The notes below the pieces were generated by a model, which did no database searches, was not told where the DNA came from, and saw nothing but the letters and a program-made list of their open reading frames with translations. From positions 1 to 37,418 of the forward strand of contig CAMUZU010000021.1 of NCBI GenBank assembly GCA_947165295.1: a stretch of 37,418 bases of DNA, given 5' to 3'. Made by a program: the position numbers and the translations under genes. Position 1 is the stretch's first letter. The number at the start of each line of letters is the position of its first letter. Below, in pieces: positions 21,904-35,150 of the stretch. Origin of the DNA: an uncultured Selenomonadales bacterium. Lineage in GTDB: Bacteria; Bacillota; Negativicutes; Selenomonadales; Selenomonadaceae.

Positions 21904-21932
21904 TTGACATTGGCAAGCGCGACGATTATAAT
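21904..21932 (+). promoter_or_regulatory. Perfect-consensus promoter for an antisense RNA
   Basis: TTGACA (21904-21909), exactly 17 bp, TATAAT (21927-21932): both hexamers and the spacing are the sigma-70/SigA consensus. No protein-coding frame follows on this strand for more than 300 bp, so it is expected to drive the RNA at 21939-22062. Confidence 0.85.
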
Positions 21933-21938
21933 CAACGC

Positions 21939-21966
21939 AAAAAAATCGTCCTGCATGAACAGGACG
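21939..21966 (-). terminator. Terminator of the small-peptide transcript
   Basis: Minus-strand CGTCCTG-ttcatg-CAGGACG followed by ATTTTTTT. On the minus strand it ends a transcript from about 22216; on the plus strand the same stem forms the 5' end of the antisense RNA. Confidence 0.75.
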
Positions 21967-22062
21967 GTGCTCATAAACGGTCTGCCCCCAAGATATATAA
22001 ATGTTGCGATTAGGAGTTTAGCCGCTGTCAGCCGTGCGATGGCTTAGGCGGCTGTTTTCGTT
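21939..22062 (+). ncRNA. Candidate antisense (antitoxin) RNA
   Basis: Predicted RNA of about 125 nt. It starts 6-8 nt after the perfect promoter. A 5' hairpin CGUCCUG/CAGGACG (21947-21966) comes first. It ends with a nested terminator-like stem (AGCCGC 22020-22025 with GCGGCU 22048-22053, inner AGCC/GGCU) followed by GUUUUCGUU. It is complementary to the 3' region of the minus-strand transcript encoding the 24-aa hydrophobic peptide, covering its stop codon and whole 3' untranslated region. It also carries GCCCCCA (21984-21990), which could pair with the GGGGG ribosome binding site of that transcript. The role is inferred from layout. Confidence 0.6.
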
Positions 22063-22118
22063 AATGCCCACAGAATTATCACCGTGAGAACAACGATACG
22101 AATGATAACTTTGACCAT
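22044..22118 (-). CDS. Hydrophobic 24-aa peptide, candidate type I toxin
   Basis: A short frame opening MVKVIIRIVVLTVIILW and ending ALTKTAA: one hydrophobic helix with Lys/Arg at the front and a small polar tail, the profile of membrane-acting type I toxins of the Ibs/Fst kind. The ribosome binding site AAAGGGGG is 8 nt from the ATG and is paired in a GGGGG/CCCCC hairpin. The transcript would run from an extended -10 promoter (22223-22231) to the terminator at 21939-21966, about 280 nt with a long structured leader. An antisense RNA from a consensus promoter overlaps its 3' half. I do not recognise the peptide family. Confidence 0.6.
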   Translation of the reverse strand: MVKVIIRIVVLTVIILWALTKTAA

Positions 22119-22126
22119 TCGCGGCA

Positions 22127-22142
22127 CCCCCTTTCCGGGGGC
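22127..22142 (-). promoter_or_regulatory. Hairpin sequestering the peptide's ribosome binding site
   Basis: In the minus-strand leader CCCCC (22141-22137) pairs with GGGGG (22131-22127) across a GGAAA loop; the GGGGG is the Shine-Dalgarno sequence of the 24-aa peptide. The GCCCCC strand could alternatively pair with GGGGGC in the 3' region of the same transcript (21989-21984), giving a possible fold-back switch. Confidence 0.6.
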
Positions 22143-22222
22143 TCCTGTTGATTAGACTGCCTGCCGTTTGGCAACGAGCAAAGTGTTACACAACTTCACA
22201 ACTGCAAAATTGCACGGCGTTA

Positions 22223-22231
22223 ATTATAGCA
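22223..22231 (-). promoter_or_regulatory. Extended -10 promoter for the 24-aa peptide
   Basis: Minus-strand TGCTATAAT (22223-22231). The -35 region is poor (TGGTAA at 16 bp). No clear plus-strand promoter for nagA is visible in the same stretch. Confidence 0.55.
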
Positions 22232-27238: not shown

Positions 27239-27261
27239 TTGCGAACAGTTGCCTGCGACCG

Positions 27262-27289
27262 TTTACAAACCGGTTTTATGTGTTATTGT
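27262..27289 (+). promoter_or_regulatory. Possible promoter for the giant repeat protein
   Basis: TTTACA (27262-27267), 16 bp, TATTGT (27284-27289). The spacer contains the perfect palindrome AAACCGGTTT (27267-27276), which could be a regulator site. Confidence 0.4.
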
Positions 27290-27335
27290 TAACTCAGTTG
27301 AAACAGTCGGCTTTCTGTCAAAGGAGATGATTTTC

Positions 27336-30300
27336 ATGGGAGTGATTAACAATTCCGCTTCCAACACGATTGTCACAGGGACGAGCGGCAACGACACGAT
27401 TTACAACAGCCCTTCGCAGGTCACAATCAACGCGGGCGCGGGCGACGACAGCATTTACAGTCGAAATTACGCATTCATGAACGGCGACGCGGGCAACGAC
27501 ACCATTACAGCCAATTACGGCGGCTCAATCAACGGCGGGGCGGGCAACGACTTGATAAACTTCAACGGTTATCGCGGGGCAGTCAACGGCGGCACGGGCA
27601 ACGACACCGTTATCAGCACGGCAACCAAAGGCGTTTTGTACCGGTACGCGTCGGGCGACGGCGACGATGTCATCTTCGGCTTCAATTCAAACGACACGTT
27701 GCAGATAACCGAAGGCACTTACCAAACGTTGATAAGCGGCGACGACTTCATTGTCAAGGTCGGCAACAGTTCAATCGTTCTGAAAGATGTTGCTGCCGAC
27801 GCGTGGGCAAAGGTTCGCATCGTAAGTTCGAGCGGCACGTTCGTTTGGAACGATTGGAGCGTCATGAACGGCACCGACGGCAACGACACGTTAAAAAACG
27901 TCCAACCCAACACGACGGTCAACGGCAACGCGGGCAACGACAGCATCACAAATTACGGCGACAGCGTCACGGTCAACGGTAACGCGGGCAACGACAGCAT
28001 CACAAATTACGGCGACAGCGTCACGGTTGACGGCGGCGCGGGCGACGACAAGATAACCCTGCGCGGCGGCGCGTTGAACAAAGTTTACGCGGGCGCGGGC
28101 AACGATTACATCTACGACAACTACAGCAACACGTTCAATTCAATCGACGGCGGCTCAGGCTCCGACACGATTGTTTCTTACACCGGCTCCGTCGACGGCG
28201 GCGCGGGCAGCGACTTGATCACAATCAGCGGCCCCGCAACGGCAAGAGGCGGCACGGGCAACGATACCATTTACGGCGTCGACAAAATCGGCATCTTCAG
28301 TGCCAACCAAAATAAACGCCTGTATCAGTATTATGCGGGCGACGGCAACGATATCATCTTCGGCTACAACGAAAACTCTTCGCTAAAGATTCGCGGCGAG
28401 GCTTACTCCACGCAACGGAGCGGCTCGGACGTCATCATTACCGTTGGCGACGGCTCAATCACTTTGGCGGGCGCGGCGACTTTATCTGACTTGCACATCT
28501 CCGGGTACAAAGTCGGCGACCCCGACAACCCGTGGCTCGTCACGCTCACCGAAGACGCCGACACTTATTCAAACACCGTCGAAGACGCGACCATTGCGGC
28601 TCTTGCGGGCAACGACAGAATTTCTAACACCGTCGACAACGTGTCAATCAACGCGGGCGCGGACAATGACACCGTCACAAACAGCGGCAAGAACGTCACA
28701 ATCACAACGGGCGCGGGCAACGACTCCGTTCGCAACTACAGTTCCGACAGCGCAAACATCTCGACGGGCGACGGCAACGACACGGTTTATAACGGAGCTT
28801 ACGGCGAGAGTGCCACAATCAACACCGGCAACGGCAACGATTTCGTTTACAACGGTCTTTACAGTTCCGCCTCGAAAATCAGTTTGGGCGCGGGCAACGA
28901 TACACTCGTCAGCGATTGGGGCGCACTGCTCACAATAAGCGGCGGCAAGGGCGACGATTCAATTAAACTCGACGTTCATTCGGACAGAGCGGTTATTGAA
29001 TACGCGTCGGGCGACGGCAACGACACAATCGACGGCTTCAACCCGACAGACACGCTCAGCTTGACGGGCGGCGCGATAACCGGCTCGGTCATTTCGGGCG
29101 ACGACCTCATCTTGAAAGTCGGCACGGGCTCAATCACTTTGCTCAACACCCGCACGGTCAACGTCGACGGCACGATTCTCAACCCGACGTCAAACGAAGG
29201 CACAAGCGCTCACGACTTCCTTACCAACTTCGACGACAACGCGACCATGAACGGTTACGGCGACTCGGACAAGCTTGGCAACACGGGCAACAACGTTTTA
29301 ATCAACACGGGCGAAGGCGACAACTCCGTCGGCAACTACGGCGACAGAGCGACAATCGTCACGGGCGACGGCAACAACACAATCTACAACGACGGCATGA
29401 GCTCGAAAATTGTCGCGGGCAGCGGCAACGACTCCATTCACAACGGCTGGACATCCGCCACGATTGACGCGGGCGACGGCGACGACACAATCATCAACAA
29501 CTACATCTCGTCACTGTCGGGCGGCGACGGCAACGACGTCATCATCGACGACTACGGACATTACGGCTCGACAATCAACGGCGGCAAGGGCGACGATACC
29601 ATTCACGCTTACTCGGACTGGGACGGCACGACGACTTTTGAATACAGCGACGGCGACGGCAACGACGTTATCTACAGCTTCGGCAAGACCGACACGCTCA
29701 TAATCGGCAACGGCACGACCGACACTTATTCGCGCACGACCGTCGGCAATGACATCATCGTCCAAGTCGGCGAAGGAAACATCACGCTCAAAGGCGCGGC
29801 ATACTTGCCGTCCGTCAATATCGCGGGCACGAAGAAAGCACCCGTCACGCCCGTCAACCCGAAACTCATTCGCCTCAGCGAACGCGCCGACACTTACGAA
29901 AACACGCTCGAAGGCGCGACGATTCAGGCACTTTCGGGCAACGACACAGTCATCAATTATGCCGCAAAAGTTTCAGTCGACGGCGGCGCGGGCGACGACG
30001 TAATCGGCAACGCAGGCAGCAACGTCACGCTCGGCGGCGGCGAAGGCAACGACTGGATTGAAAACTGGGACGGCAACAATGTCCTCATCGACGGCGGCAA
30101 CGGCAACGACCTGCTCTTGAACAATTACAACAGCGACAACGGCAAGAACCTCACAATCAACGGCGGGGCGGGCGACGACTCAATTCAAAACATGCACGAC
30201 AGCGTTACCGTCAACGCGGGCGACGACAACGACTTGATTGAAAACTACGCGGAGACATTTTCCGTCAACGGCGGCAAGGGCTCCGACACCGTTCGCAACT

Positions 30301-33300
30301 ACGGCGACAACACGACAATCACGGGCGGCGCGGACAACGATTTAATCAGCCTCCAATCGGCAAGCAAGAACAACCGAATTCAATACGCGTCAGGCGACGG
30401 CAACGACACAATCAGCGGCTTCAACGCGACGGACACGCTCATAATCGGCGGCGGCACGGGCACTTACTCAACGCAAGTCAGCGGCTCGGACATCATTGTC
30501 ACAGTCGGCGAAGGCTCAATCGTCCTCAAAGGCGCGGCAAGTCTCTCAAGCGTCAACATCTCCGGCAAGGAAAGCATCAAGCCGATTGACCCCGACGATC
30601 CGAAATTAATCACGCTCACCGAAGACGCCGACACTTACAGCAACACCGTCCAAGGCGCGACGATTCTTGCGCTCGGCGGCAACGACAGAGTCACCAACAA
30701 GGCGGCCGACGTTTCAATTTCGGGCGGCGACGGCGACGACAGAGTTACATTGTCCGGCACGGGAAGCACTGTCGACGCGGGCGACGACAACGACGCTGTT
30801 ATCAATTCGTCGGCAAGCGTTTCAATCGACGGCGGCAACGGTGACGACTCAATCGACAGCATGGGTTTGTACTCGACGCTTGTCGGCGGCGACGGCAACG
30901 ACTCAATCCGCAACAAGACGGGCAACGGCACAATCCTTGCGGGCGCGGGCAACGATTCGATTGTCGCAATGGGCACAAACTACATTGACGCGGGCGCGGA
31001 CGACGACGAAGTCACGGTCTTTGCGGGCGGCAGGAACAGCACGGTTCTCAGCGGAGCGGGCGACGACTCAATCAACAACATTGCCGACAACGTCACATTT
31101 ATTCACAAGGCGGGCGACGGCTCCGACACAATCAGCGGCTTCAGGGCGAACAGCACGCTTTTGACCGACGGCGAGGCTTCGTTCCAAACTGTCGGCAATG
31201 ACGTTGTTGTTTCAATCGGCGACGACTCAATCTTACTCAAAGGCGCGGCAAGTCTTTCAAGCGTCAACGTCGACAACGAAGGCAACGGCGACGCTTACCT
31301 CAGGCTCGACGGCACGCAGGCGATTTACGGCACGGGCGACGAAGTTATCTTCACGATTTACGGCATCGGCGCGGGCGCGAAGTTGTCGGACTTCGTCATA
31401 AGCGGCAAGACCGTCACAATCAGTAAAGGCGCGCTCGACAAAGGCGAACTCTTCCTCGACAGCGACGAGTACACGCTCAAGTTTGCAAGCGACGTTCCGA
31501 CTTCCGCGACGAAAGTCAACGCGTCGTGGAGTGCTTTGACGGACGGCAAGGCGACGTTCACCGCGGCGGCTCTGTCCGATTATTACACGCTCGAAGACAA
31601 CAGCGTCACGTACAACGAAGGCGAAGGCGGCGAAAGCTTCACGCTCACGGGCATTAAATCCATTGCCGCGACTGCCGTTGAAGTCGACGAAGACACAAAG
31701 ACCGTCACGGTGAACGCGGCGGCTCTCGGCAACGACAATGTCACCTTCGACAGCGAAGACTTCACGTTGACTTTGGGCGACGACGTTGCTCAAGACCCCG
31801 GCGACGGCGACGCGAAGTTTATTTCCTTCGACGCGGGCACGGCGGTTTACGAAGTTACAAGCGGCAACGCTTATTACACGCTCGACGGCAACGAAATTTC
31901 CTTCACCTCCGCGGGCTCCACGACGCAGTTCACAATCAGCGGGCTTGCGGATAACTTGATGCTTGTCAACGGCACTCTCGGCGGTGTTGAAGTCCTGCGC
32001 GACGGCGACGAAGTCAAGTTCATCCTGTCGACATACGCGCTGAAGAATTCCAACGTCACGGTGACGGGAACCGGCGCGACTCTCGAACTCGGCGACGACG
32101 TTTTGCAGTCCGCTGAAACGATTGACGGCGCGTGGAGCGAAGTCACGGGCGGCAAGGCAACTTACTCGACGAACGGCAAGACGAAGTATTACACGCTCAG
32201 CGGCAACCAAATCGTTTATCACGCGGCGGTTGACGGCGACATCGAAATTGAACTTGCGGGGCTTGCTTCAACCGTCACAAGCGAAGACGGCGCGATTGAC
32301 GAGCTCAGCGTCAACGAAAACGCTTTGACAGTTTCGGGCAACATCGTCGACGGGAACCTCGTCGTCGTGCGCAACGAAAAGAATTTGTCGATTGACATTG
32401 GCGGCGACGTGGAAAACATTTCCGTCACGGGCACGGACGACGCGGACAACTTCAACGTCGCGGGCAAAAACGTCACGGTCATTGGCTCGGACGGCGACGA
32501 CGTTGTCGACATGCAAGGCAGCGGCGTCATTCAATACGCGTCGGGCGACGGTAACGACACGCTCAACCACTCGGACGAATACACGATTAAAATCACAAGC
32601 GGCACGGTCGGCAAGGCGACTGTCGACGGCGACGACGTGATTATCCCCGTTGACAAAGGCTCGCTCACGATTAAGGACGGCAGAGCGCAACCGATTAATC
32701 TTGTCGACGCGAAAGGCAACGCGACGGTTTTGGTTGTCGACGATCCAATCGGACGCTTCTTGACGTACAACGACGACGAAACTGCAGTAACCGTTGAGGC
32801 GGGATTCAACGCGGGCACAATCGGCGCGGGCGATTACTCCTCGACGGTCAAGACGATTGTTTCTTCGGCGGTTGAAGAACCGATTGAACTTTTCGGCAAC
32901 GACAAGGCGAACTTGATTATCGCCAACGACAACGCAAACACAATCCACGGCGGCAAGGGTGCCGACACGATTCACGGCGGACAAATTCTTTCGGGCGACG
33001 CGGGCAACGATGTCTTCGTTTACTCTCAAGGCGACGTGACAATAACCGATTACTCGACGGGCGACAAAGTTTCTCTCGACGGCGCGCAGATTTCCGACGT
33101 TCACATAAGCGGCGACGACATTGTCTTGAGCTTCGGCGACGAAAATTCTTTGACGATTCAAGATGCCTCGACGAAGAAAATTACTTTCGTCAACGACAAG
33201 ACCGCGACGCAATATCTCTTCGCGGACGGAGCGATTTTCAACTCGGGCAAGACCACCGCGACGCTCACCGCTTCGGCAAGCAAATTCAACGCGGGCAGTT

Positions 33301-35030
33301 ACACTTCACTCGCGACGATTGACGGCTCGAACGTCGACGGGCAACTTCAAATCGTCGGCAACGCGAAGGCGAACAAAATCTTCGCGGGCAACGGCGGCTC
33401 CACGCTCAACGGCGGCAAGGGCAACGACACGCTCACGGGCGGCGACGGCGCGGACGTCTTCGTTTACGAAAACAAGTCGGGCAACGACGTTATCGCGAAC
33501 TTCGGCGCGGACGACAAAATTTCTCTCGGCGCGGGCGCAAGTATCTCAAGCTTCAAGTTCAACGCGAAAGGCGACGTCACGTTTAAAGTCGGCAGCAACA
33601 ACCTCACCGTCAAAGACGTCGAAGGTCAAACGCTTACTTTCGTCGACGCGGCGGGCAACGAAACTTCCGCGACGTATGACACAGACAAAGTCATTCAAGG
33701 CGACGGCACAACTTTGACTTCCGCGTTCAAAGAAAAGACGTTCACCGCACCGACGGGCACCAAGATTGTTGACGCTTCGGACGTGTCGAAAAGTTTCGCG
33801 CTCAACGGCAACGACTCCGACAACGTCTTAATCGGCGGCAACGGCGTGCAAACTCTGCGCGGCGGCGACGGCAACGACACCTTGACGGGCGGCAAAGGCA
33901 ACGACGTTTTCATCTACGAACGCGGCGACGACACAATCACCGATTACGCGACGGGCGACAAAATTTCGTTGACTTCAGCGGTCAACTCTTTCCGCACGGA
34001 CGGCGATGATGTTATAATTGACTTCGCCGAAGGTTCGCTGACGATTCAAGACGCGGCGGGCAAGAAAGTAACGCTCATTGAAAACGGCAAGTCCTCGGTC
34101 AACATCTTCGCGGCGGGCGGCATTTTGAACACTGCGGGCACGGCGATAACTCTTGCCGCGTCGACACAAACGTACACCGCCGACAGCAAGGTCACGACGA
34201 TTGACGGCTCGAACGTCAACGGGCAACTTCAAATCGTCGGCAACACGAAGGCGAACAAAATCTTCGCGGGCAACGGCGGCTCCACACTCAGCGGCGGCAA
34301 AGGCACCGACACGCTCACGGGCGGCAACGGCTCGGACGTCTTCGTCTACGAAAACAAGTCGGGCAACAAAGTTATCCAAAGCTTCGGCGCGGGCGACAAG
34401 ATTTCAATCAGCGGCGCGACGGTCACGGACATTTACACTTCGGGCGATAAAACGATTGTCAAAGTCGGCAGCAACTCGATCACCGTCAAAGGCGCGGCGG
34501 ACGTTTCACTCGTCGACGACGACGGCGAAAAGAATTTCCGCAACGGTTTGCTTTACGGCGCGAACGGCTCGGTCACGGTTCCCGCTTCGTTCAAACAGAA
34601 GACGACCACGCCGCTTGAACTGTCCGCTGCACTCGTCGACGCGTCGGCGGACAAATATCCGCTCAACATGAAATCGACTTCGACGACGGGCGCATCAATT
34701 CACGGCGGCACGAAGAACGACACGCTCACCGGATCGGCGAAGAACGACACGCTTTACGGCGGCAAAGGCACCGACAGCTTGTGGGGCGGCGGCGGCGCGG
34801 ACACCTTCGTTTACGAAAAAGGCGACGGCAAAGATTTCATCTTCGGCTTCGGCAACGACGACTTGCTCGAAATTGTCGGCATGGGTCAGAAAGTCACCGG
34901 CACCTTCAACAAGGCGGGCGACACCTTCACCGTCAAGGCGGGCGCAACGACCGTCGCCGTGCTCAAAGACTTCAGCGCGACGACTTTCAACGTCACCGCA
35001 GACGGCACAAGTCACCAATTCAAAAAGTGA
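27336..35030 (+). CDS. Giant RTX-like calcium-binding repeat protein
   Basis: 2564 aa, dominated by glycine/aspartate nonapeptide repeats of the GGxGxDxhx type (GNDTIYN, GAGDDSI, GGKGNDTLTGG) that fold as Ca2+-binding beta rolls. No Sec signal is present, so secretion is expected through a type I system, which is not in the window. Residues 1 to about 1310 form six modules of about 215-245 aa, each closed by a cap like YASGDGNDTI-(D/S)GFN-xTDTL. Residues about 1315-1700 are a different beta-rich region of repeated 90-aa units (YTLxxNxVxYN ... TLTLGDDV). Residues about 1720-2564 return to RTX blocks with FVYENKSGNDVI caps. The C-terminus is TADGTSHQFKK. ATG 27336 has AAGGAG at 9 nt. Likely a surface or adhesion protein (inference). 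Confidence 0.9.
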   Translation: MGVINNSASNTIVTGTSGNDTIYNSPSQVTINAGAGDDSIYSRNYAFMNGDAGNDTITANYGGSINGGAGNDLINFNGYRGAVNGGTGNDTVISTATKGVLYRYASGDGDDVIFGFNSNDTLQITEGTYQTLISGDDFIVKVGNSSIVLKDVAADAWAKVRIVSSSGTFVWNDWSVMNGTDGNDTLKNVQPNTTVNGNAGNDSITNYGDSVTVNGNAGNDSITNYGDSVTVDGGAGDDKITLRGGALNKVYAGAGNDYIYDNYSNTFNSIDGGSGSDTIVSYTGSVDGGAGSDLITISGPATARGGTGNDTIYGVDKIGIFSANQNKRLYQYYAGDGNDIIFGYNENSSLKIRGEAYSTQRSGSDVIITVGDGSITLAGAATLSDLHISGYKVGDPDNPWLVTLTEDADTYSNTVEDATIAALAGNDRISNTVDNVSINAGADNDTVTNSGKNVTITTGAGNDSVRNYSSDSANISTGDGNDTVYNGAYGESATINTGNGNDFVYNGLYSSASKISLGAGNDTLVSDWGALLTISGGKGDDSIKLDVHSDRAVIEYASGDGNDTIDGFNPTDTLSLTGGAITGSVISGDDLILKVGTGSITLLNTRTVNVDGTILNPTSNEGTSAHDFLTNFDDNATMNGYGDSDKLGNTGNNVLINTGEGDNSVGNYGDRATIVTGDGNNTIYNDGMSSKIVAGSGNDSIHNGWTSATIDAGDGDDTIINNYISSLSGGDGNDVIIDDYGHYGSTINGGKGDDTIHAYSDWDGTTTFEYSDGDGNDVIYSFGKTDTLIIGNGTTDTYSRTTVGNDIIVQVGEGNITLKGAAYLPSVNIAGTKKAPVTPVNPKLIRLSERADTYENTLEGATIQALSGNDTVINYAAKVSVDGGAGDDVIGNAGSNVTLGGGEGNDWIENWDGNNVLIDGGNGNDLLLNNYNSDNGKNLTINGGAGDDSIQNMHDSVTVNAGDDNDLIENYAETFSVNGGKGSDTVRNYGDNTTITGGADNDLISLQSASKNNRIQYASGDGNDTISGFNATDTLIIGGGTGTYSTQVSGSDIIVTVGEGSIVLKGAASLSSVNISGKESIKPIDPDDPKLITLTEDADTYSNTVQGATILALGGNDRVTNKAADVSISGGDGDDRVTLSGTGSTVDAGDDNDAVINSSASVSIDGGNGDDSIDSMGLYSTLVGGDGNDSIRNKTGNGTILAGAGNDSIVAMGTNYIDAGADDDEVTVFAGGRNSTVLSGAGDDSINNIADNVTFIHKAGDGSDTISGFRANSTLLTDGEASFQTVGNDVVVSIGDDSILLKGAASLSSVNVDNEGNGDAYLRLDGTQAIYGTGDEVIFTIYGIGAGAKLSDFVISGKTVTISKGALDKGELFLDSDEYTLKFASDVPTSATKVNASWSALTDGKATFTAAALSDYYTLEDNSVTYNEGEGGESFTLTGIKSIAATAVEVDEDTKTVTVNAAALGNDNVTFDSEDFTLTLGDDVAQDPGDGDAKFISFDAGTAVYEVTSGNAYYTLDGNEISFTSAGSTTQFTISGLADNLMLVNGTLGGVEVLRDGDEVKFILSTYALKNSNVTVTGTGATLELGDDVLQSAETIDGAWSEVTGGKATYSTNGKTKYYTLSGNQIVYHAAVDGDIEIELAGLASTVTSEDGAIDELSVNENALTVSGNIVDGNLVVVRNEKNLSIDIGGDVENISVTGTDDADNFNVAGKNVTVIGSDGDDVVDMQGSGVIQYASGDGNDTLNHSDEYTIKITSGTVGKATVDGDDVIIPVDKGSLTIKDGRAQPINLVDAKGNATVLVVDDPIGRFLTYNDDETAVTVEAGFNAGTIGAGDYSSTVKTIVSSAVEEPIELFGNDKANLIIANDNANTIHGGKGADTIHGGQILSGDAGNDVFVYSQGDVTITDYSTGDKVSLDGAQISDVHISGDDIVLSFGDENSLTIQDASTKKITFVNDKTATQYLFADGAIFNSGKTTATLTASASKFNAGSYTSLATIDGSNVDGQLQIVGNAKANKIFAGNGGSTLNGGKGNDTLTGGDGADVFVYENKSGNDVIANFGADDKISLGAGASISSFKFNAKGDVTFKVGSNNLTVKDVEGQTLTFVDAAGNETSATYDTDKVIQGDGTTLTSAFKEKTFTAPTGTKIVDASDVSKSFALNGNDSDNVLIGGNGVQTLRGGDGNDTLTGGKGNDVFIYERGDDTITDYATGDKISLTSAVNSFRTDGDDVIIDFAEGSLTIQDAAGKKVTLIENGKSSVNIFAAGGILNTAGTAITLAASTQTYTADSKVTTIDGSNVNGQLQIVGNTKANKIFAGNGGSTLSGGKGTDTLTGGNGSDVFVYENKSGNKVIQSFGAGDKISISGATVTDIYTSGDKTIVKVGSNSITVKGAADVSLVDDDGEKNFRNGLLYGANGSVTVPASFKQKTTTPLELSAALVDASADKYPLNMKSTSTTGASIHGGTKNDTLTGSAKNDTLYGGKGTDSLWGGGGADTFVYEKGDGKDFIFGFGNDDLLEIVGMGQKVTGTFNKAGDTFTVKAGATTVAVLKDFSATTFNVTADGTSHQFKK
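27917..28024 (+). repeat. 54-bp in-frame tandem duplication
   Basis: An 18-residue unit (NGNAGNDSITNYGDSVTV) is present twice in succession with almost identical DNA (one base difference seen, C/T), unlike the more diverged neighbouring repeats. It marks a recent repeat expansion. Confidence 0.85.
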
Positions 35031-35047
35031 TTCGCCATACACAACTG

Positions 35048-35137
35048 AATATCGGGGAGCTTGCAAACAGGCTGAGAGGAAGTTGTTCACTTCGACCCGC
35101 AAACCTGATTCGGATAATGCCGACGTAGGAAACATAA
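35048..35137 (+). promoter_or_regulatory. TPP riboswitch (THI element)
   Basis: Shows the conserved thiamine-pyrophosphate aptamer blocks in order: CGGGGAGC, then GGCTGAGAGG, then GACCCGC, then ACCTGATTCGGATAATGCCGACGTAGGAA (positions 35104-35132). These are the pyrimidine-sensing helix with CUGAGA and the diphosphate-binding helix. It is followed by a terminator and by thiT-thiC, so high TPP should stop transcription of thiamine uptake and pyrimidine-moiety synthesis. Confidence 0.96.
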
Positions 35138-35150
35138 CTTGACACGCATT

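What the first reader, a model, noticed from the sequence alone, without database searches (positions are those of the whole stretch)
21904..22231. Candidate type I toxin-antitoxin locus between putP and nagA
A 24-codon strongly hydrophobic frame with a good but hairpin-locked ribosome binding site has its own extended -10 promoter and terminator. A perfect consensus promoter on the other strand drives an RNA of about 125 nt that is antisense to its 3' half and has its own terminator-like stem. Opposed transcripts of about 280 and 125 nt around one membrane peptide match type I toxin-antitoxin systems (Ibs/Sib, TxpA/RatA, Fst in general design). I do not recognise the peptide itself, so it could be a new family.
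Basis: partly seen in the sequence, partly recalled or inferred. Interest (0 to 1): 0.8.

Follow-up and report, generated by a model that had tools for sequence, protein, structure and literature searches.

The report
Multi-copy candidate type I toxin-antitoxin family
A tiny membrane-peptide gene with its own opposing antisense RNA sits between two metabolic genes of an uncultured gut bacterium, and it turns out to be one copy of a repeated, conserved gene family that looks like a new set of bacterial self-toxin switches, not yet tested in the laboratory.

Summary
Window 21904-22231 holds a 24-codon hydrophobic ORF (22118-22044, minus strand) with an extended -10 promoter, a Shine-Dalgarno (SD) hairpin and a terminator. 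A perfect TTGACA-17-TATAAT promoter on the plus strand drives a predicted ~125-nt RNA antisense to the mRNA's 3' half. It is one of three copies in this genome, and 46 of 66 held genomes of its genus (rumen/gut Selenomonadaceae MAGs) have the family, some in tandem. Among 380 genomes of the class, matches at E <= 1e-4 lie in 1 of 102 genera. The ORF is under coding selection (pN/pS 0.32 against 0.84 and 2.06 in the shifted frames). The opposing promoter scores at least 9 of 12 in 102 of 120 units. I also found that the mRNA leader pairs with its own 3'UTR; these helices covary and collapse when slid. The anti-SD keeps two exclusive partners, the SD and the 3'UTR, and the antisense RNA covers the 3' arm. 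Three relatives with the same putP-nagA order lack the unit there. No Pfam, NCBIfam, PADLOC or Rfam family fits. Best reading: a new type I toxin-antitoxin family with an AapA-like folded mRNA. Transcription, toxicity and antitoxin action are untested.

The parts
22223..22231 (-). toxin promoter, extended -10 (TGC-TATAAT); poor -35 (3 of 6)
21940..22216 (-). predicted toxin mRNA, about 277 nt
   Evidence: promoter and terminator positions, fold z -4.45
22154..22180 (-). 5' arm of the long-distance 5'-3' interaction (two blocks with a local hairpin between them)
   Evidence: fold of window mRNA; covariation in 104 units
22137..22141 (-). anti-SD CCCCC
22127..22131 (-). Shine-Dalgarno GGGGG, 8 nt before the ATG, in a hairpin with the anti-SD
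22044..22118 (-). 24-codon hydrophobic peptide ORF (stop included)
   Evidence: coding selection in the family
21967..21989 (-). 3' arm of the 5'-3' interaction, with GGGGG (21985-21989) that could also pair the anti-SD
21947..21966 (-). toxin mRNA terminator hairpin, followed by a T-run (21946-21940)
21904..21932 (+). antisense RNA promoter, perfect TTGACA-17-TATAAT
   Evidence: in the family 102 of 120 units at 9 or more of 12
21939..22062 (+). predicted antisense (antitoxin) RNA, about 125 nt, complementary to the last codons and the 3'UTR; 3' end approximate
22020..22058 (+). terminator-like stem of the antisense RNA (short T4 run); overlaps the KTAA-stop codons of the ORF
   Evidence: stem columns in the family; not listed by the scan

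Best explanation
A type I toxin-antitoxin module, one copy of a family found so far in one genus. The minus strand makes an mRNA for a 24-residue membrane-spanning peptide. SHOWN from sequence: the ORF is under coding selection; the SD is complementary to an anti-SD just upstream; the leader is complementary, with covariation, to the 3'UTR; a conserved opposing promoter faces the 3' half. INFERRED: as it is made, the leader folds into the SD hairpin. Once complete, the mRNA closes on itself by 5'-3' pairing into a stable, untranslated form. The antisense RNA, taken to be short-lived, binds the 3' half, including the 3' arm of that pairing, and has the mRNA destroyed as a duplex and/or kept shut. 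If the antisense RNA runs out, 3' processing or a refolding in which the 3'UTR takes the anti-SD exposes the SD; the peptide is made, enters the inner membrane and slows or stops growth.
For: Copies: 3 in own genome; 46 of 66 same-genus genomes and 0 of 123 others of the order at E <= 0.01 (genus size); 44 of 380 class genomes at E <= 1e-4, in 1 of 102 genera. Coding: pN/pS 0.32 in codons before the predicted antisense overlap against 0.84 and 2.06 in the shifted frames, 118 distinct CDS. Start: ATG in 119 of 123. SD: five columns pair with the anti-SD in 84-104 of 101-104 rows, a sixth in 74 of 101. Toxin promoter: 9 or more of 12 in 118 of 122, shuffled 7.9%; terminator in 121 of 123, shuffled 14.8%. 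Opposing promoter: 9 or more of 12 in 102 of 120, shuffled about 6%, other strand of the same stretch 2 of 120. 5'-3' helices: standard pairs 0.953 and 0.924 in register against at most 0.542 and 0.511 when slid; column pair 67-319 is UA 76, CG 24, UG 4 of 104. Peptide GRAVY mean +1.74. [quoted passage not shown]
Against: No transcript, toxicity or antitoxin action is shown. The antisense terminator has only four Ts and was not found by the scan. 18 of 120 units lack a good opposing promoter by my scoring. 20 of 66 genomes of the genus show no match, though many are incomplete. The helices were first drawn from the same alignment on which they are counted. The tree test of covariation rests on few supported independent changes (67-319: 5 pairs, 4.7 concordant, 0 discordant, median p 0.0625; the other LDI pairs 2-3 pairs each, none significant). 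The count of 8 or more 5'-3' pairs in 118 of 119 units is not discriminating: shuffled 3'UTRs give it in 115 of 180. In the model the SD stays mostly paired in every state tried, so the opening step is unexplained.
Confidence: 0.8

Rival explanations
1. A small membrane protein with a non-toxic job (regulator of a transporter or a stress response), kept low by antisense RNA and mRNA folding.
For: Many small single-helix bacterial proteins are regulators (recalled). The sequence data show a conserved peptide and tight control but not toxicity.
Against: 1-8 matches per genome at E <= 0.01, no match in 20 of 66 (partly incomplete) genomes, tandem arrays and absence at the same site in three relatives fit an expendable module better than a housekeeping regulator.
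Confidence: 0.14
2. The RNA is the function: the plus-strand transcript is a trans-acting small RNA, and the ORF on the other strand is incidental.
For: Strong plus-strand promoter and a foldable RNA.
Against: Frame-specific coding selection outside the overlap, ATG in 119 of 123 and a conserved SD, conserved promoter and terminator for the ORF strand (118 of 122 and 121 of 123).
Confidence: 0.03
3. A leader or attenuator element for putP or nagA.
For: It lies in their shared intergenic region and the antisense promoter points at nagA; in three relatives a nagA promoter-like TATAAT lies near the same place.
Against: Of 30 nagA loci examined (of 58 found), only the window's own has a family member within the fetched stretch. 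Three relatives keep putP-nagA without it.
Confidence: 0.03

Closest known systems
AapA/IsoA (Helicobacter pylori; Epsilonproteobacteria)
   Same: Several chromosomal copies, small toxic peptide, cis antisense RNA, 5'-3' long-distance interaction and SD-sequestering hairpins (PMC6733600, Introduction and Working model sections read).
   Different: In AapA3 three anti-SDs act in turn on one SD and the long-distance pairing itself traps the SD. Here one anti-SD has two partners (SD or 3'UTR), the best-supported long-distance arms pair the leader rather than the SD, and the antisense covers the 3' half. Peptide homology to AapA was not tested directly.
Hok/Sok
   Same: 5'-3' fold-back of an inert full-length mRNA (recalled).
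   Different: Hok is about twice as long (recalled). PF01848 finds nothing in the own genome and rings in the E. coli control; the antisense position differs (recalled).
TxpA/RatA and BsrG/SR4 (Bacillus)
   Same: Antisense RNA convergent on the 3' end of the toxin mRNA (recalled).
   Different: Hol_Tox model PF16935 finds nothing in the own genome and rings in the Bacillus subtilis control.
Ibs/Sib (E. coli)
   Same: Very short hydrophobic peptide (IbsC 19 residues, PMC8309996 passage), antisense RNA; repeated copies (recalled).
   Different: Ibs_toxin PF13956 finds nothing in the own genome and rings in the E. coli control. E. coli genomes hold no similar DNA. In Sib the antisense covers the whole toxin gene (recalled).

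Membership tests
Type I toxin-antitoxin system (as a kind) | small hydrophobic peptide gene under coding selection | tested here: met
Type I toxin-antitoxin system (as a kind) | antisense RNA gene overlapping the toxin mRNA with its own promoter | tested here: met
   sequence only; transcription not shown
Type I toxin-antitoxin system (as a kind) | non-translatable primary transcript (SD sequestered) | tested here: met
   predicted only:
Type I toxin-antitoxin system (as a kind) | peptide is toxic to its own cell | not testable with these tools
   needs expression
Type I toxin-antitoxin system (as a kind) | antisense RNA neutralises the toxin | not testable with these tools
   needs co-expression
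AapA/IsoA | 5'-3' long-distance interaction of the toxin mRNA | tested here: met
   covariation and slid controls; no probing
AapA/IsoA | homologous AapA peptide | not tested
   no AapA model was named; the general scans gave no convincing hit
TxpA/Hol_Tox (PF16935) | match to the family model | tested here: not met
   none in own genome at E <= 0.001; rings in 2 of 14 controls
Ibs (PF13956) | match to the family model | tested here: not met
   none in own genome at E <= 0.001; rings in E. coli; also no Pfam hit of that name among 24 members
Hok (PF01848) | match to the family model | tested here: not met
   none in own genome at E <= 0.001; rings in E. coli
Fst (PF13955) | match to the family model | tested here: not met
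   none in own genome at E <= 0.001; control rings in 1 of 14, below its cut-off
Rfam RNA families | match at gathering score | tested here: not met
   only TPP in the window; best over this locus RefB11, 16.9 bits against 54

The most novel reading that the evidence does not exclude
The 3'UTR is an on-switch: it takes the anti-SD away from the SD (anti-anti-SD), so that only a complete mRNA can open, and the antisense RNA works at a distance by occupying that 3'UTR and leaving the SD hairpin shut. One anti-SD evolving with two exclusive partners would be a different logic from AapA, where closing of the ends is the off-state. For it: the anti-SD tracks the 3'UTR at columns 90-316, 92-314, 93-313 and 94-312 (0-2 of 1000 shuffles reach the observed pairing), and the anti-SD-on-3'UTR state is at most 2 kcal/mol above the hairpin state in 57 of 119 units and below it in 29 of these. 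Against it: freed from the anti-SD, the SD gains little freedom in the model (median unpaired 0.30 against 0.17); on the tree the contrasts are few and one pair gives no support (90-316: 2.9 concordant, 0 discordant of 4; 94-312: 1.7 and 0.1 of 4; 93-313: 0.6 and 0.6 of 2).
Probability: 0.22. Interest if true: 0.78.

Novelty: new member of a known kind. Interest (0 to 1): 0.62.

Why it matters
If true, it is a type I toxin-antitoxin family in uncultured gut Selenomonadaceae, a lineage for which my searches of the held papers listed no such report. It occurs in up to 8 copies per genome (E <= 0.01) and no model of Pfam, NCBIfam, PADLOC or Rfam fits it. 104 non-redundant natural variants of one regulated mRNA let its folding logic be read by covariation and tested directly. 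The coding frame overlaps the terminator-like stem of its own antisense RNA, a clear case of double constraint.

Tried and rejected
E. coli genomes, phages and plasmids: no match. Viral contigs: 79 stretches matched a pattern, none confirmed. Weak hits outside the genus (E 0.02-0.9) are treated as noise; the better model gave none at its cut-offs. One search gave 28 own-genome matches. Besides the window itself, three belong to C14 (the paralogue and a remnant at C14:51353, L002, an antisense-terminator-like stretch without a toxin ORF). Of the rest I looked only at C11, C10 (two) and C44, plus C1; these lie in other genes and hold no unit. The C6 paralogue came, not.

One search is invalid (a constraint function misused) and was replaced. 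The measure '8 or more 5'-3' pairs' was dropped as evidence because shuffled 3'UTRs also reach it. Own against swapped 3'UTR duplex energy (-37.2 own, -33.6 swapped, -25.4 shuffled; own among the best 5% of swaps in only 20 of 122) is weak alone. The script stopped on an indexing error after printing its counts; the rest was redone. My first toxin-promoter rule always returned a best site and had no control; one search added a threshold and shuffles.

Rows dropped: of 139 hits at E <= 0.001 the 136 frames at E <= 1e-6 were taken; 11 were duplicates and 2 had no start codon by my rule (L089, L116), leaving 123. 120 had both promoter and terminator by the rule, 119 a scorable SD, 104 were non-redundant. 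I fetched most but not all of the matches listed.

Full report
WHAT IS THERE. The window is contig 21 of a 2.49-Mb, 110-contig genome, 80% complete. The unit sits between divergent putP (TIGR02121, 652 bits) and nagA (TIGR00221, 333 bits). On the minus strand an extended -10 (22231-22223) is followed by a leader, the SD hairpin GCCCCC-GGAAA-GGGGG (SD 22131-22127), a 24-codon ORF 22118-22044 and a terminator at 21966-21947. On the plus strand a perfect promoter (21904-21932) would start an RNA of about 125 nt. It begins in the complement of the mRNA terminator and ends at a stem that overlaps the ORF's KTAA-stop codons. That last stem has only four Ts and was not called by the scan.

IT IS A FAMILY. 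Two more copies with the same layout are in the same genome: C14:42817-42894, MRVIKIIIRVTLLTGAILLLLSKTAA, and C6:45605-45682, MRVIRIIIRVTLLTGAILLLLSKTAA. A profile of 24 peptides matched 46 of 66 same-genus genomes and 0 of 123 other genomes of the order at E <= 0.01 (genus size). There are 1-8 matches per matching genome; my hand sum of that column is 148. At E <= 1e-4, 44 of 380 genomes of the class match, in 1 of 102 genera. An earlier three-row profile also gave single hits at E 0.02-0.9 outside the genus, which I take as noise. A scan of named genomes confirmed 15 of 85 candidate stretches, all in Selenomonadaceae or Selenomonadales MAGs; those whose title names a source are from goat, sheep and roe deer gut. 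Tandem arrays occur, for example three units 352 and 353 bases apart.

THE PEPTIDE IS A GENE PRODUCT. Over 118 distinct coding sequences, pN/pS in codons -23 to -7 (before the predicted antisense overlap) is 0.32 (990 non-independent pairs), against 0.84 and 2.06 in the shifted frames. Differences between close pairs at codon positions 3, 1 and 2 number 1309, 505 and 276. In the last six codons the ratio is 0.63 because silent change is also held back (pS 0.27 against 0.46). ATG starts 119 of 123 members. Most conserved are R at -18 (115 of 118), I at -10 (114), L at -9 (111) and T-A-A at the end (107, 114, 105); mean GRAVY +1.74.

BOTH PROMOTERS ARE CONSERVED. The toxin promoter scores 9 or more of 12 in 118 of 122 members (7.9% of shuffled upstream regions) and a terminator is found in 121 of 123 (14.8% of shuffled). 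The window's own toxin promoter is of the extended -10 kind with a poor -35. Median mRNA is 255 nt in 120 units. The opposing promoter scores 9 or more in 102 of 120 units against about 6% of shuffled regions and 2 of 120 on the other strand of the same stretch; of the 102, -10 is TATAAT in 84 and the spacer 17 in 92. The start lies a median 114 nt after the stop codon, for an antisense of about 132 nt. 18 units fall short.

THE mRNA ENDS PAIR. In 104 non-redundant units the leader pairs with the 3'UTR in two blocks (columns 21-25/332-337 and 60-68/318-326). Standard pairs are 95% and 92% in register, and at most 54% and 51% when slid by 1-3 columns. Column pair 67-319 is UA 76, CG 24, UG 4 (104 of 104; Watson-Crick 100 against 64.8 shuffled, 0 of 1000). 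Pairs 22-336, 24-333, 25-332, 61-325 and 68-318 also exceed all shuffles, although 68-318 is a standard pair in only 80 of 103. Pairs 21-337, 23-335 and 63-323 say nothing either way, and 60-326 and 62-324 are unremarkable (96 and 79 of 1000). On a tree built without these columns, 67 and 319 change 9 and 12 times; five supported independent contrasts gave 4.7 concordant and none discordant (median p 0.0625). The other pairs have 2-3 contrasts each, with no discordance on average but little power. The structure was first drawn from the same alignment, which favours it somewhat.

TWO PARTNERS FOR ONE ANTI-SD. The anti-SD pairs the SD in most units and also tracks the 3'UTR (columns 90-316, 92-314, 93-313, 94-312; 0-2 of 1000 shuffles), though less tightly (standard pairs 0.705 in register, 0.651 one column off). 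Folding puts the anti-SD-on-3'UTR state a median 2.1 kcal/mol above the SD-hairpin state (at most 2 above in 57 of 119, below in 29 of these), and losing all 5'-3' pairing costs a median 9.3 kcal/mol. However, random 3'UTRs also form many pairs with the leader (median 10.9, 8 or more in 115 of 180; real units mean 17.8), so energy alone proves little; the covariation carries the claim.

PRESENCE AND ABSENCE. Of 30 nagA loci (30 of 58 hits were given as loci), the window and three others (L178, L179, L180) show putP within the fetched stretch. In those three the gap is 113, 195 and 111 bp with no unit; in the window it is 448 bp with the unit. The exact edges are unclear because the antisense promoter aligns with a TATAAT before nagA in the relatives. 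A remnant with only an antisense-terminator-like stretch lies at C14:51353. The unit has been gained or lost at this site; the direction is not settled, and incomplete genomes limit what the 20 of 66 non-matches mean.

HOW IT PROBABLY WORKS. See the best explanation. The shown steps are coding selection, paired promoters, SD hairpin and 5'-3' complementarity. Antisense action, 3' processing or refolding, and membrane damage are inferred from type I systems in general (PMC6733600, Introduction and Working model read; PMC8309996, passages read).

KNOWN OR NEW. Pfam, NCBIfam and PADLOC gave nothing for the window peptide or its two paralogues at E <= 10. Across 24 members there are only single-member weak hits (best NCBIfam E 0.018, best Pfam E 0.1). 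Three PHROGs of unknown function were at E 0.11-1.6 for the window peptide. The models of Hol_Tox, Ibs, Hok and Fst find nothing in the own genome. Rfam: none at this locus. Paper searches listed, by title and abstract, no report of a type I system in Selenomonadaceae or Negativicutes. They cover open-licence papers only, one search listed 8 of 13, and the T1TAdb paper was not held. PMC12390103 (passages seen) says type I systems were known from Proteobacteria, Firmicutes and Tenericutes and describes one in Cyanobacteria; Selenomonadaceae have been counted among Firmicutes (recalled), so the phylum is not new, the family appears to be.

VERDICT. [quoted passage not shown] I file it as a new member of that kind by design, with toxicity and neutralisation open.

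Noticed in passing
window 35043-35148 (+): TPP riboswitch aptamer, 67.4 bits against a gathering score of 54.3.
   Followed up: no
window 27249-35030 (+): 2593-aa open frame with RTX calcium-binding nonapeptide repeats (PF00353) and partial similarity, below the curated cut-offs, to repeat-bearing secreted proteins; probably a large secreted repeat protein, function not assigned.
   Followed up: partly
L002 1490-1520 (genome C14:51353): Stretch identical over 20 bases to the window's antisense terminator stem, without a toxin ORF beside it: looks like a decayed copy.
   Followed up: partly
upstream of some units, e.g. L033, L044, L122: An A-run and a CGCC-TTGAATT-GGCG inverted repeat sit over the toxin promoter's -35 (by eye). 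A run of seven A shortly before TTGAA is found upstream in 40 of 122 members and not in the window copy. It could be an operator or a stop for a longer antisense RNA.
   Followed up: partly
window 21904-21945 against L178, L179, L180: The antisense promoter lies where three relatives have a TATAAT before nagA, so in this genome the antisense promoter may also feed nagA.
   Followed up: no
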